Source of the DNA: Elusimicrobiaceae bacterium
GTDB lineage: Bacteria; Elusimicrobiota; Elusimicrobia; Elusimicrobiales; Elusimicrobiaceae
DNA: 64,000 nucleotides
NCBI GenBank assembly: GCA_017618215.1
Contig: JAFZUQ010000008.1
Span: 1 to 64,000 of the forward strand
Reading direction: 5' to 3'
Shown in pieces: positions 1 through 61,628 of this stretch. The notes beneath the pieces are model-generated. The model ran no database searches. It had not been told where the DNA came from and saw only the letters and a list, made by a program, of their open reading frames with translations. Made by a program: the position numbers and the translations under genes. The first letter of the stretch is position 1, and every line of letters begins with the position of its first letter.

Positions 1-115
1 GTCTTGCTTTTTCAACAGATTTCCTGTATTGAGGAAATGCGATACTTGCAAGTATACCGATAATCAAAACAACGACTAATAATTCAATTAAGGTAAAACC
101 CTTTTTATTTTTCAT
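1..115 (-). CDS. Type IV pilin-like protein, N-terminal fragment
   Basis: Only the first 38 codons lie in the window; the gene runs off the left edge. The translation begins [15 protein letters not shown], a class III prepilin signal: short basic leader, cleavage expected between Gly6 and Phe7, Glu at mature position 5, then a hydrophobic helix that anchors the subunit and packs in the filament core. The helix is followed by a short polar stretch ([11 protein letters not shown]). It is the first of four pilin-like genes in this window. No good Shine-Dalgarno is visible before the ATG. A clear promoter lies at 155-183 on the same strand. Whether it is a major pilin, minor pilin or pseudopilin cannot be told from the fragment. 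Confidence 0.9.
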
Positions 116-154
116 AATATTTTTATTGTTAAAGTTTTTTTTAAGTATGAATAT

Positions 155-183
155 ATACTATTAAAAAAACGAAATTATGTCAA
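155..183 (-). promoter_or_regulatory. Promoter of pilin fragment, TTGACA / TAGTAT
   Basis: Read on the minus strand, a perfect TTGACA (-35, 178-183) is followed by exactly 17 bp and TAGTAT (-10, 155-160). The spacer contains CG followed by seven T. The same arrangement of consensus -35, CG and T-tract precedes the pilin genes at 36545 and 62901. The expected transcript start is near 148, giving a leader of about 33 nt. Confidence 0.7.
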
Positions 184-230
184 GAAAATTTTAAAAAGTT
201 AAATCAAAAACATCACTTTATTTGAATAGA

Positions 231-409
231 GCGGCGGGGATTCCCTTACGGTAAATTTTCTGATGAAAATTTCCTACGGGCCTGGGTTCGCCGTGCTCGC
301 CTTTCGCGTTTGCCTAAAAGGCTCGCGCTCAAACTCGGATATGGCTGCGGCTTTCAAATCCCCCGCAATGCCAAGCAGCGAGGCGCTGTGCCCCCACAGT
401 TGGCATTGC
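231..409 (-). repeat. tRNA-linked repeat, copy A (next to tRNA-Pro CGG)
   Basis: This fills most of the 116-465 gap, downstream of tRNA-Pro(CGG) in its direction of transcription. It holds a near-copy of the tRNA's T-arm/acceptor DNA at 231-244 (compare 471-483), a core at about 295-361, and an inverted, slightly degenerate copy of the same T-arm at 353-366. A perfect 10-bp hairpin follows, GCAATGCCAA (365-374) with TTGGCATTGC (400-409). The core recurs at about 61414-61478 beside a different tRNA, and there the flanking T-arm copies match that other tRNA. The region is more GC-rich than its surroundings. No protein is convincing; an open frame across it (329-523, minus) is a by-product of the tRNA and repeat. 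Confidence 0.75.
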
Positions 410-424
410 TCCAGGCCTATTTTT

Positions 425-453
425 TAAAATAAAAAACCACCTTTCGGTGGTTT
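425..453 (-). terminator. Rho-independent terminator after the tRNA-Pro pair
   Basis: An 8-bp stem AAACCACC/GGTGGTTT (434-441 with 446-453) with a 4-nt loop is followed, on the minus strand, by a T-rich tail (T6, then ATTTTA). It lies 12 nt beyond the tRNA-Pro(CGG) 3' end and would end the tandem tRNA transcript. Confidence 0.85.
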
Positions 454-465
454 CTATTTTAAAAA

Positions 466-538
466 TCGGGGCGGCGGGATTCGAACCCACGACCTCACGG
501 TCCCGAACCGTGCGCGCTACCAACTGCGCTACGCCCCG
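466..538 (-). tRNA. tRNA-Pro (anticodon CGG)
   Basis: This is a 73-nt cloverleaf without encoded CCA. The acceptor stem CGGGGCG pairs with CGCCCCG. The anticodon stem CACGG/CCGTG holds loop TTCGGGA, giving anticodon CGG. The T-loop is GGTTCGAATCC. It lies 28 nt downstream of tRNA-Pro(GGG), is probably co-transcribed with it, and is followed by a terminator. Its T-arm sequence is copied in the neighbouring repeat at 231-366. Confidence 0.95.
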
Positions 539-566
539 TAAAACGATTTAGTATGGAAAGTAAAAA

Positions 567-638
567 TCGGGGAACCGAGAATCGAACTCGGGATCTCTCG
601 CACCCCAAGCGAGCGCTATACCACTAAGCCATTCCCCG
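567..638 (-). tRNA. tRNA-Pro (anticodon GGG)
   Basis: This is a 72-nt cloverleaf with acceptor CGGGGAA/TTCCCCG. The anticodon stem CTCGC/GCGAG has loop TTGGGGT, so the anticodon is GGG. With 466-538 (CGG) and 20175-20246 (TGG), all three usual proline isoacceptors occur in this window. No CCA is encoded. Confidence 0.95.
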
Positions 639-686
639 AAATAACTACCTAGATATTAAGTACCCAAAAGAGTACCTATATATATT

Positions 687-1040
687 TTAGCATTCTTTTA
701 AGATTTGTGAAAGGGTTTCCCTTATTTCTTTTAGAAATCTTAAATTTTTTGCGCTGTAAAAATTGCCATCTTCTTTAGCTCCACCGACGGAAAAAAAGCG
801 GTTTAGATGTTTTTTAGCACCGGCAACCGTCATTTTATGTTTATAGATAAGTTCTTTAATTTGCAATACAACTTCTACATCTGCTTTAGTATATCTGCGG
901 TGATGCGATGCCTTTTTTATTGGGCTGAGTGCGGTAAAATTCTTCTCCCAATACCTTATAGTATACTCCGGCACGCTGCAAATACGTGCTACTTCGCCGA
1001 TAGTAAAAAAATCTTTTTTAGTTAATTCTTCTAAAGTCAT
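687..1040 (-). CDS. MerR-family transcriptional regulator
   Basis: A 117-aa protein with an N-terminal winged helix-turn-helix of MerR type (about residues 11-80): FTIGEVARICSVPEYTIRYWE is followed by the HRRYTKADVEVVLQIKELI wing and helix region. A short C-terminal tail has no metal-binding cysteine cluster or obvious ligand domain, so it resembles the small HTH-only MerR proteins often found next to HU/IHF genes. Its ATG overlaps the stop of the HU gene by 4 nt (ATGA), indicating translational coupling. It is the last gene of the ridA-malQ-plsY-gpsA-HU operon. The target is unknown. Confidence 0.88.
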   Translation of the reverse strand: MTLEELTKKDFFTIGEVARICSVPEYTIRYWEKNFTALSPIKKASHHRRYTKADVEVVLQIKELIYKHKMTVAGAKKHLNRFFSVGGAKEDGNFYSAKNLRFLKEIRETLSQILKEC

Positions 1041-59232: not shown

Positions 59233-60111
59233 TTATCCTCTTGGGTGGAATTTACGGTGTTTGGCACGTATATCTTGAATATTCACATGCGTGTAAATTT
59301 GCGTGGTATTTAAGCTTTCATGCCCAAGCATTTCTTGAAGGGAACGTAAGTCCGCCCCGCCTTGCAAAAGATGGCTTGCAAAGGTGTGTCTAAATAAATG
59401 CGGGTGTAAAGGGGTACTTATTCCGGCCTGGCGGCCAAGCATTTCAATATCTTTCCAAACACTTATGCGGCTTAGTTTTTTGCCTTGTTTGTTTAAAAAT
59501 ATTTCGCTGTCCGTTTCTTTAGTAGCGAAATGTGCATTGCGTTCAAACAAATAGCGTTCAAGCAAGGCACACGCCTCTTGGTGCATCGGCACAAAACGTT
59601 GCTTTCTGCCTTTACCGAAAGCCAAAACCCAACCTTCTTTTGTGTTCACATTTTCAAGTTGCAAATTGATAAGTTCGCTAACCCTTAAACCCGTCGCATA
59701 AAATAAACTTACAATACACAAAGTGCGCCACTCCGCAAAATTTGTGGGTGGGAAAGATAAAAGTTTTTCCATATCTTCTTGCGAAAGTTGGCTCGGCACT
59801 TTTTGAATTAGACGGGGGGAGTATAAAAATTTTGTTGGGTCTTCCTTAATTAAGCCTTCAATTAACATAAATTTATAGAAACATTTTACTGCTTCAATTT
59901 TACGGAAAACACTTGCCGGCGCAAGTGTCCTTTCGGTTTTAAGAGAATAGACAAAATTATCCAAAAGTTCCGGGCTGGCCTCGGCAAGGCCTTTATTATG
60001 ACGCGTGCAAAAATCGGCAAACTGTTTAATATCGCGCCCGTAAGAATCAATGGTGTTTGGCGAAAGTTGCCGCTCAAAAGTAAGATGATTTTTAAATTCG
60101 TCTATCAGCAT
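59233..60111 (-). CDS. xerD: Tyrosine recombinase XerC/XerD
   Basis: 292 aa. Resolves chromosome dimers at dif. The N-terminal SAM-like domain (TFERQLSPNTIDSYGRDIKQF) and the catalytic residues are present: Arg in YATGLRVSELINL, Lys in AFGKGRKQRFVP, HLFRHTFASHLLQGGADLRSLQEMLGHESLNTTQIYTH compressed as His-Arg, His and Tyr. Length and context (housekeeping operon) argue against an integrase of a mobile element. XerC versus XerD is not resolved. It is last of DUF3137-DUF167-xer. Confidence 0.92.
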   Translation of the reverse strand: MLIDEFKNHLTFERQLSPNTIDSYGRDIKQFADFCTRHNKGLAEASPELLDNFVYSLKTERTLAPASVFRKIEAVKCFYKFMLIEGLIKEDPTKFLYSPRLIQKVPSQLSQEDMEKLLSFPPTNFAEWRTLCIVSLFYATGLRVSELINLQLENVNTKEGWVLAFGKGRKQRFVPMHQEACALLERYLFERNAHFATKETDSEIFLNKQGKKLSRISVWKDIEMLGRQAGISTPLHPHLFRHTFASHLLQGGADLRSLQEMLGHESLNTTQIYTHVNIQDIRAKHRKFHPRG

Positions 60112-61226: not shown

Positions 61227-61294
61227 TTCTATTTCTCCTATAAATTTTAATCCTTAGGGTACAATTTATTGTAGCATTTATAAAGGTAAAGAGT

Positions 61295-61505
61295 TTAAGT
61301 CATGGACATAAGCCAAGCAGTTTATGCGCTGTGGAGCAAAAATTAACGCCCACCGGACTTGGCCACAAGTCCGCTTGTTGACCCTCGCGGCTCGCGGCCC
61401 CGCCTCGCCATCCTTGCCTTTCGCGCTCGCCTAAACGGCTTGCGCTCAAACTCGGATATGGCTGCGGCTTTCAAGTCCTGGACGCAAGCCAAGCAGTTGG
61501 CTTGC
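61295..61505 (-). repeat. tRNA-linked repeat, copy B (next to CAT tRNA)
   Basis: This occupies the gap downstream of the CAT-anticodon tRNA. It holds a direct copy of the tRNA T-arm/acceptor DNA (61348-61362, CGCCCACCGGACTTG compared with CGCCCACCAGGACTTG in the tRNA), the core at about 61414-61478 shared with copy A, an exact inverted T-arm copy TTCAAGTCCTGG (61470-61481) and a 9-bp hairpin GCAAGCCAA/TTGGCTTGC (61484-61505). A second partial unit with the AAGCCAAGCAG hairpin motif lies at 61295-61330, so part of the locus is tandemly duplicated. GC-rich relative to the flanks. Confidence 0.75.
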
Positions 61506-61511
61506 TTGGGC

Positions 61512-61544
61512 AAAAAAAATTTAGCCTATCCGTGAAGGATAGGC
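61512..61544 (-). terminator. Rho-independent terminator after CAT tRNA
   Basis: Stem GCCTATCC/GGATAGGC with a 4-5-nt loop; on the minus strand it is followed by TAAA and eight T. It lies 11 nt after the tRNA 3' end, between tRNA and repeat B. Confidence 0.88.
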
Positions 61545-61554
61545 CAAAATTTTT

Positions 61555-61628
61555 TGCGCCCACCAGGACTTGAACCTGGGACCATTCGATTATGAGTCGA
61601 GTGCTCTAACCAACTGAGCTATGGGCGC
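61555..61628 (-). tRNA. tRNA with CAT anticodon (elongator Met or Ile2)
   Basis: A 74-nt cloverleaf; acceptor GCGCCCA/TGGGCGC; anticodon loop CTCATAA gives CAT. The anticodon stem lacks the three G-C pairs of initiator tRNA, so it is either elongator tRNA-Met or the lysidine-modified tRNA-Ile2. The stem has a C-A mismatch at its top. The two cannot be separated with confidence by eye. Its T-arm is copied in repeat B. Confidence 0.9.

What the first reader, a model, noticed from the sequence alone, without database searches (positions are those of the whole stretch)
231..409. tRNA-linked repeat whose ends copy the adjacent tRNA's T-arm (copy A)
A ~65-bp core (295-361) also occurs at 61414-61478. 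At both loci the core lies downstream of a tRNA and its terminator, is preceded by an inverted copy of that tRNA's T-arm and followed by a direct copy, each matching its own neighbour rather than the other tRNA. Here the copies are of tRNA-Pro(CGG); there, of a CAT tRNA. A perfect hairpin with a conserved CCAA...TTGG stem sits at one end of both. This could be the remains of an element that inserts at tRNA 3' ends, or a structured RNA/pairing partner for tRNA. I do not recognise it as a named family.
Basis: seen in the sequence. Interest (0 to 1): 0.75.

Follow-up and report, generated by a model that had tools for sequence, protein, structure and literature searches.

The report
Tiny tRNA-addressed structured repeat elements
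Behind many tRNA genes of Elusimicrobiota and Patescibacteria sit 150-220-base non-coding repeats that appear to move between different tRNA genes yet carry a short stretch rewritten to complement whichever tRNA they sit behind; nothing of this kind could be found described.

Summary
At least 10 of 43 tRNA genes in this genome, 80 of 90 genomes in its family, 68 of 199 sampled genomes across its phylum and 51 of 142 in a class of Patescibacteria carry the same unit on the tRNA strand: tRNA - (usually terminator) - hairpin h (loop AACTGCTT) - T' (reverse complement of the tRNA's T-loop and 3' T-stem) - structured module m - X2 (direct copy of the tRNA 3' end from T-loop C56). In m, 26/34 pairs show compensatory changes. 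Arms follow the tRNA (22 anticodons; 0/10,000 permutations). Decisively, modules at least 90% identical inside but sitting at tRNAs with different T-arms have T' matching their own tRNA at 63 of 66 diagnostic positions: m moves, the address is rewritten. No ORF, no Rfam family, no viral, phage or plasmid hit; RAYT transposases are absent from the richest genomes. I read it as a non-autonomous miniature mobile element aimed at tRNA T-loops, acting as folded single-stranded DNA, with T' re-templated on the new tRNA. The enzyme is unknown; a functional RNA is the main rival. One correction: copy A's inner arm fits tRNA-Leu(CAG) better than its neighbour tRNA-Pro.

The parts
466..538 (-). tRNA-Pro(CGG), host of copy A; its 3' end (T-loop onward) is the X that is copied
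   Evidence: ARAGORN; Rfam RF00005
432..455 (-). intrinsic-terminator-like hairpin between tRNA-Pro and copy A
365..409 (-). hairpin h of copy A: GCAATGCCAACTG...CTGCTTGGCATTGC, same stem as the Leu(CAG) locus with a 21-bp loop extension
   Evidence: loop AACTGCTT in 80 of 95 modules
353..364 (-). T' arm of copy A (GGGGGATTTGAA): inverted T-arm copy; 7/9 to tRNA-Pro, 9/9 to tRNA-Leu(CAG)
244..352 (-). module m of copy A: core hairpin (GCAGCCATATCCGAG...) and 3' hairpin 250-274 (GGAAATTTTCATCAGAAAATTTACC)
   Evidence: CM match 67.6 bits, window 234-363 on -; covariation
231..243 (-). X2 of copy A: direct copy of tRNA-Pro 3' end (GAATCCCCGCCGC)
61555..61628 (-). tRNA-Met (anticodon CAT), host of copy B
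61520..61548 (-). terminator between tRNA-Met and copy B
61507..61511 (-). acc': short complement of the tRNA acceptor 3' strand (GCCCA)
   Evidence: weaker in general, 5.0/7 against 4.25/7 for other tRNAs
61484..61505 (-). hairpin h of copy B: GCAAGCCAACTGCTTGGCTTGC
61470..61481 (-). T' arm of copy B (CCAGGACTTGAA), exact complement of tRNA-Met TTCAAGTCCTGG
61362..61469 (-). module m of copy B
   Evidence: CM match 69.2 bits (R1) / 93.8 bits (R2)
61347..61361 (-). X2 of copy B: direct copy of tRNA-Met 3' end (CAAGTCCGGTGGGCG)
61294..61326 (-). truncated second unit at copy B: hairpin CATAAACTGCTTGGCTTATG then T' CCATGACTTAAA, no module

Best explanation
A family of miniature, non-coding, non-autonomous mobile elements whose landing site is the T-loop of tRNA genes. 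SHOWN: the unit h-T'-m lies between the tRNA 3' end (X) and a direct copy of it (X2) that starts at T-loop C56; near-identical units occur behind different tRNAs, some in one genome; T' is complementary to the tRNA the unit currently sits behind; m is conserved as a covarying, strand-specific fold; units pile up as tandem arrays. INFERRED: the mobile form is folded single-stranded DNA (integron-attC-like in logic). T' gives it its address by pairing with the universal-plus-specific T-loop/T-stem sequence. Strand transfer in the T-loop leaves the tRNA intact and makes the X/X2 repeat. On or after landing, T' is overwritten with the new tRNA's sequence, by mismatch repair of the T':X duplex or by quasipalindrome template switching (a documented process that homogenises inverted-repeat arms in one step). 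The recombinase is supplied in trans and was not identified. The terminator often found between tRNA and unit, and the restored 3' end, would keep the tRNA working.
For: tRNA linkage: 83 of 86 CM matches have a same-strand tRNA 43-554 bp upstream, two of the three others begin at contig edges; 70 of 84 exact-motif loci plus 5 at contig edges, most of the remaining 9 being chance motif hits in unrelated genomes; 11 of 11 matches examined in a single-contig Patescibacteria genome. Movement: the closest inner-module relative sits at a different tRNA for 54 of 62 modules; 14 are at another tRNA of the same genome (shuffled mean 4.3, max 12). G044 Ser(TGA) and Cys(GCA) units are almost identical except at T'. 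Re-addressing: 63 of 66 diagnostic positions follow the unit's own tRNA in 38 ordered pairs with >=90% inner identity. T' mismatch to the tRNA 3.7% per nt against 11.5% for X2; where X2 and tRNA differ, T' follows the tRNA 71:20. T' even follows unusual T-loops (TGCAAGT to ACTTGCA; TCCGATT to AATCGGA). att-like repeat: starts at C56, median 18, up to 100 bp. Fold: 94.9% of cells paired, 583 compensatory cells against 180 shuffled, 0/500. DNA rather than RNA: G-U 24 and A-C 26 in m helices outside two invariant T-G pairs, against 31 and 6 in tRNA stems of the same loci; C-GNA-G and C-GNNA-G loops dominate and the tRNA-sense strand folds better with DNA parameters in 90 of 95.
Against: No closely related occupied/empty pair was found that shows an insertion event directly: the Val-uppS locus is occupied in the close relatives that keep the tRNA there, and more distant ones lack it. 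No mobilising enzyme was found: XerC/D and ordinary integrases occur in genomes with and without units, and Y1 transposases are absent from rich genomes. No excision product or circle was seen. Interleaving of tRNA-derived (acc', T', X2) and element-derived (h, m) segments is not what simple site-specific insertion gives, so a re-templating step must be assumed. The G-U scarcity could also come from template-switch mutation (PMC8794818), so it does not prove a DNA-level fold. Counts are of related sequences, not independent events.
Confidence: 0.55

Rival explanations
1. A tRNA-linked structured RNA. acc'-h-T'-m-X2 can be drawn as a tRNA-like fold (acceptor stem, one arm, a T-stem with m in its loop), released from a tRNA precursor by RNase P/Z, or it pairs through T' with its tRNA and regulates it.
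For: Strong covarying fold on the tRNA strand; T' is held closer to the tRNA than X2 is; perfect split complement around h in some loci (L387, L437).
Against: Terminator between tRNA and unit in 57/67; no promoter inside the two window copies; almost no G-U exchange; presence varies, with several relatives of the same genus having none, and modules are shared between tRNAs. No Rfam match.
Confidence: 0.2
2. Att-site debris of ordinary tyrosine-integrase islands or prophages: partial tRNA copies left after repeated integration and excision, with REP-like palindromes trapped in between.
For: Direct repeats start in the T-loop, part of known tRNA attachment sites (PMC2647930, citing Williams 2002); integrases are present in these genomes.
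Against: An internal inverted, re-addressed T' is not part of any att; m is conserved and covarying across two phyla; 0 hits in 2.9 million viral contigs and none in phage or plasmid records.
Confidence: 0.1
3. No mobility: arrays grow locally by replication slippage and template switching at the hairpin-rich tRNA end; homogenisation keeps T' and X alike.
For: Exact tandem duplicates at five tRNA loci of G014; template switching homogenises inverted repeats (PMC7202029, PMC8604942, PMC8794818).
Against: Cannot bring the same h and m to 22 or more tRNA types, nor near-identical m at unlinked tRNAs of one genome.
Confidence: 0.1

Closest known systems
REP / BIME repeats and RAYT transposases (GTAG and CGTC superfamilies)
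   Same: Short palindromic extragenic repeats, thought to move as single-stranded hairpins; the most frequent tetramer just after h is CGTC (34 of 95), a tag of REPs with no known transposase (PMC3733652).
   Different: Here linked to tRNAs, 150-220 bp, three hairpins, with tRNA-derived arms; Y1 transposases absent from rich genomes; in the published CGTC REPs the tag is unpaired, here it overlaps the stem end.
Integron attC sites and cassettes
   Same: Structure conserved more than sequence, variable terminal loops, extrahelical bases and unpaired spacers, strand-specific fold (PMC2727003); tandem arrays.
   Different: No GTTRRRY/RYYYAAC boxes, no integron integrase shown, no cassette ORF; the base stem comes from the tRNA.
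Integrative elements at tRNA genes
   Same: Direct repeat of the tRNA 3' end starting in the T-loop.
   Different: About 150-220 bp, no genes, plus an internal inverted copy that follows the tRNA.
Escherichia coli tyrT / rtT repeats (RF00391; recalled from memory, the original papers are not in the library searched)
   Same: Tandem ~180-bp repeats behind a tRNA, each ending with a piece of the tRNA 3' end.
   Different: One tRNA only; T', h and m not known there; no Rfam hit of RF00391 to these units.
Partial tRNA gene fragments in prokaryote annotations (PMC9897764)
   Same: Incomplete tRNA pieces in prokaryote genomes.
   Different: Described as fragments mistaken for genes, not as part of a conserved structured unit (start of abstract only read).

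Membership tests
REP/RAYT | Dedicated Y1 (IS200/IS605-like) transposase in the genome | tested here: not met
   PF01797 absent from G000, G014, G024, G026, G027, G044 that carry 11-24 units
REP/RAYT | 20-40 bp hairpin with unpaired GTAG or CGTC tag | tested here: inconclusive
   h is a 20-30 bp hairpin often followed by CGTC or CGTA, but the tag overlaps the stem
Integron attC | GTTRRRY/RYYYAAC R boxes | tested here: not met
   outer stem is tRNA T-arm sequence and differs at each tRNA
Integron attC | folded ssDNA substrate of a tyrosine recombinase | not testable with these tools
   fold and Watson-Crick-only covariation agree with ssDNA; no enzyme known
tRNA-integrating element | direct repeats of the tRNA 3' end flank the element | tested here: met
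   median 18, max 100 bp, starting at C56
tRNA-integrating element | encodes or is served by a site-specific integrase | tested here: inconclusive
   no ORF in the unit; integrases found in genomes with and without units
Rfam RNA families (incl. RtT RF00391) | reaches the gathering score of a family | tested here: not met
   ten loci scanned at E<=1 and window 1-700 at gathering: only tRNA reached its gathering score
Virus- or plasmid-borne element | present in viral, phage or plasmid records | tested here: not met
   0 exact matches in viral contigs; no blastn match in plasmids or phages

The most novel reading that the evidence does not exclude
A new class of mobile nucleic acid that rewrites its own address: an ORF-free element that travels as a folded single strand, finds any tRNA gene through a base-pairing T-loop complement, and has that complement re-templated on each new host tRNA, shared by Elusimicrobiota and Patescibacteria.
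Probability: 0.4. Interest if true: 0.93.

Novelty: categorically new. Interest (0 to 1): 0.85.

Why it matters
Known miniature repeats have fixed ends; here an inner arm is reset to match each target, so targeting by base pairing and target-templated rewriting would be combined in an element without genes. It accounts for much of the DNA behind tRNAs in two little-studied phyla, including small-genome Patescibacteria, and offers a natural system for asking how single-stranded structures and template switching move and remodel DNA. If instead it proves to be RNA, it is a large undescribed tRNA-linked RNA family. Both are directly testable by RNA-seq and strain comparison.

Tried and rejected
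RAYT/REP mobilisation: Y1_Tnp absent from the richest genomes. A unit-specific tyrosine recombinase: none separated rich from empty genomes among 12 tested; the integrase upstream of the Val(gac) unit of this genome lies in a separate phage-like cluster. Virus or plasmid origin. Known RNA families. Empty-site comparison at tRNA-Val/uppS: close relatives occupied, others without a tRNA there. Arms as a trivial result of all T-arms being alike: rejected by permutation. Downstream type IV pilin genes as cargo: suggestive but not shown; in this genome 2 of 10 unit-bearing tRNAs against 1 of 32 without, and that one is tRNA-Pro(ggg) next to copy A. The tRNA-like reading of acc'-h-T'-m-X2 is attractive, but acc' is only partly complementary in general and nearly missing in compact units (L450, L451).

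Full report
WHAT WAS CHECKED. Both lie on the strand of, and behind, a tRNA and its terminator. Searching the window's own genome (1.34 Mb, 19 contigs) for the exact core gave four places, all behind tRNAs: Pro, Met, Leu, Ser. Reading the flanks of essentially all 43 tRNAs of that genome showed at least ten with such units, in one to three tandem copies, two of them cut short (Asn, Val-tac).

ANATOMY, read along the tRNA: tRNA ending in X (T-loop, 3' T-stem, acceptor); usually a terminator (57 of 67); sometimes a partial complement of the acceptor strand (acc'); hairpin h with loop AACTGCTT (80 of 95); T', the reverse complement of T-loop plus 3' T-stem; module m with a long hairpin full of G.A internal loops and a second hairpin (GGAAAATTCCGTCAGGAATTTTACC type, with a conserved bulged A); X2, a direct copy of X that starts at T-loop C56 and runs up to 100 bp (median 18). 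In arrays the whole unit repeats. In the clearest cases (L100, L387, L437) acc'+T' together equal the complement of the tRNA 3' end, split by h exactly between acceptor and T-stem.

STRUCTURE. Eleven modules aligned by MAFFT gave 34 consensus pairs, 16 with two-sided changes. A covariance model R1 aligned 103 matches: 94.9% of cells pair, 26 of 34 pairs have compensatory changes, 583 such cells against 180 after shuffling and at most 120 when the partner is slid. The alignment was fitted to the model, so these numbers lean towards the structure, but the MAFFT alignment shows the same. Exchange is almost purely Watson-Crick: outside two invariant T-G pairs, G-U 24 and A-C 26 in the m helices, against 31 and 6 in tRNA stems of the same loci. 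Loops are mostly C-GTCA-G and C-GAA-G; the tRNA-sense strand folds better than the other in 90 of 95 with DNA parameters. I take this as pointing to single-stranded DNA, with the reservation that template switching also yields compensatory changes without G-U steps (PMC8794818; abstract level only).

RANGE. R1 matched 80 of 90 genomes of the family; R2 68 of 199 genomes of the phylum, 21 of 65 genera. Named hits are Elusimicrobiaceae and Elusimicrobiales genomes, many from guts. Genuine units also occur in Patescibacteria (Kaiserbacteria L329, Paceibacterota L293 and others), and 51 of 142 genomes of that class match R2. Some genomes of the same genus as the window have none (G001, G007, G011, G015). 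None in viral contigs, phages or plasmids.

tRNA LINKAGE AND ARMS. 83 of 86 matches have a same-strand tRNA just upstream; two of the other three start at contig edges. In Patescibacteria 21 of 29 by ARAGORN, and several of the other eight show the T-arm of a tRNA that ARAGORN missed, perhaps split by an intron; 11 of 11 in one single-contig genome. Over 90 modules at 22 anticodons the left arm matches its own tRNA at 8.08 of 9 positions against 6.19 for other tRNAs, the right arm 7.62 against 6.04; none of 10,000 permutations of tRNA identity reached either. Where X2 differs from the tRNA, T' follows the tRNA 71 times and X2 20 times; T' has 3.7% mismatches per base, X2 11.5%.

MOVEMENT WITH RE-ADDRESSING. 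For 54 of 62 modules the most similar inner module sits at another tRNA, 14 of them in the same genome. Units at Ser(TGA) and Cys(GCA) of G044 are almost identical through h and m and differ at T' to suit each tRNA; the same is seen for Arg/Ser, Gln/Leu and Ser/Leu pairs. In 38 ordered pairs with at least 90% inner identity at tRNAs with different T-arms, T' follows its own tRNA at 63 of 66 diagnostic positions. Copy A of the window is a useful exception: its T' still fits tRNA-Leu(CAG), its hairpin is the Leu hairpin with a loop insert, and its X2 fits tRNA-Pro, as if it had been copied from the Leu locus and not, or not fully, re-addressed. Direction of that copy is inference.

MECHANISM. 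Shown: location, arms, sharing of modules between tRNAs, fold, tandem growth. Inferred: ssDNA as the active form, strand transfer in the T-loop, T' as address, rewriting of T' by repair or template switching on the local tRNA, enzyme in trans. Y1 transposases are excluded as a general answer; no integrase distinguishes rich from empty genomes among twelve.

COMPARISON. REPs, attC sites, tRNA-integrating islands and the E. coli rtT repeats each share one or two features but fail, or could not be shown to meet, a defining one (membership table). Literature searches of the open-access library found no description of such units; that library is partial, so an existing description elsewhere is possible.

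VERDICT. A real, widespread and apparently undescribed family; most likely a tRNA-addressed miniature mobile element (0.55), with a functional RNA as the main alternative (0.2).

Noticed in passing
window 1-115 (-) and L001 1874-2025: The same type IV pilin-like gene with nearly the same upstream region lies behind the units at both tRNA-Pro(cgg) and tRNA-Leu(cag); both contigs end inside it. Pilin motifs are frequent within 1.5 kb downstream of units in other genomes, but enrichment is not established.
   Followed up: partly
L038, L098, L264, L274, L281, L323: A second element of about 330 bp with inverted ends (GTTGGCAAG...CTTGCCAAC in L098) seems to be inserted at the same spot, the T'/m boundary, in several genomes.
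   Followed up: no
window 59233-60111 (-): A XerC/XerD-type tyrosine recombinase (292 aa, PF00589 match at 59281-59787) lies about 1.2 kb from copy B; such genes occur in all genomes tested, so no link is claimed.
   Followed up: partly
L244 30-3858: Upstream of tRNA-Val(gac) of the same genome: a reverse-transcriptase-like fragment (FVDD motif), a gene resembling filamentous-phage replication proteins (by eye) and a 372-aa tyrosine integrase, perhaps an inovirus-like prophage.
   Followed up: no
L246-L250 (genome G014): Five tRNA loci carry two identical tandem units (spacing 173-210 bp), so unit number probably changes fast.
   Followed up: partly
L437 4900-5300: A unit in opposite orientation to its tRNA-Ser, joined to it through a palindrome of the tRNA 3' end, next to a shortened unit: units can invert.
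   Followed up: no
L373 1046-1424; L370 922-1425: tRNA genes with long introns (group I-like by eye) in Patescibacteria host units behind them; T' still matches the tRNA's T-arm.
   Followed up: no
T' arms of Leu(gag), Asn, Val(tac), Thr, Arg(ccg) units, e.g. L131, L050, L149, L106: Some T' arms deviate from exact complement in a regular way: G or GA opposite A58 (ACGAG for ACTCG, AGCG for ATCG), giving G.A mismatches like those inside m.
   Followed up: no
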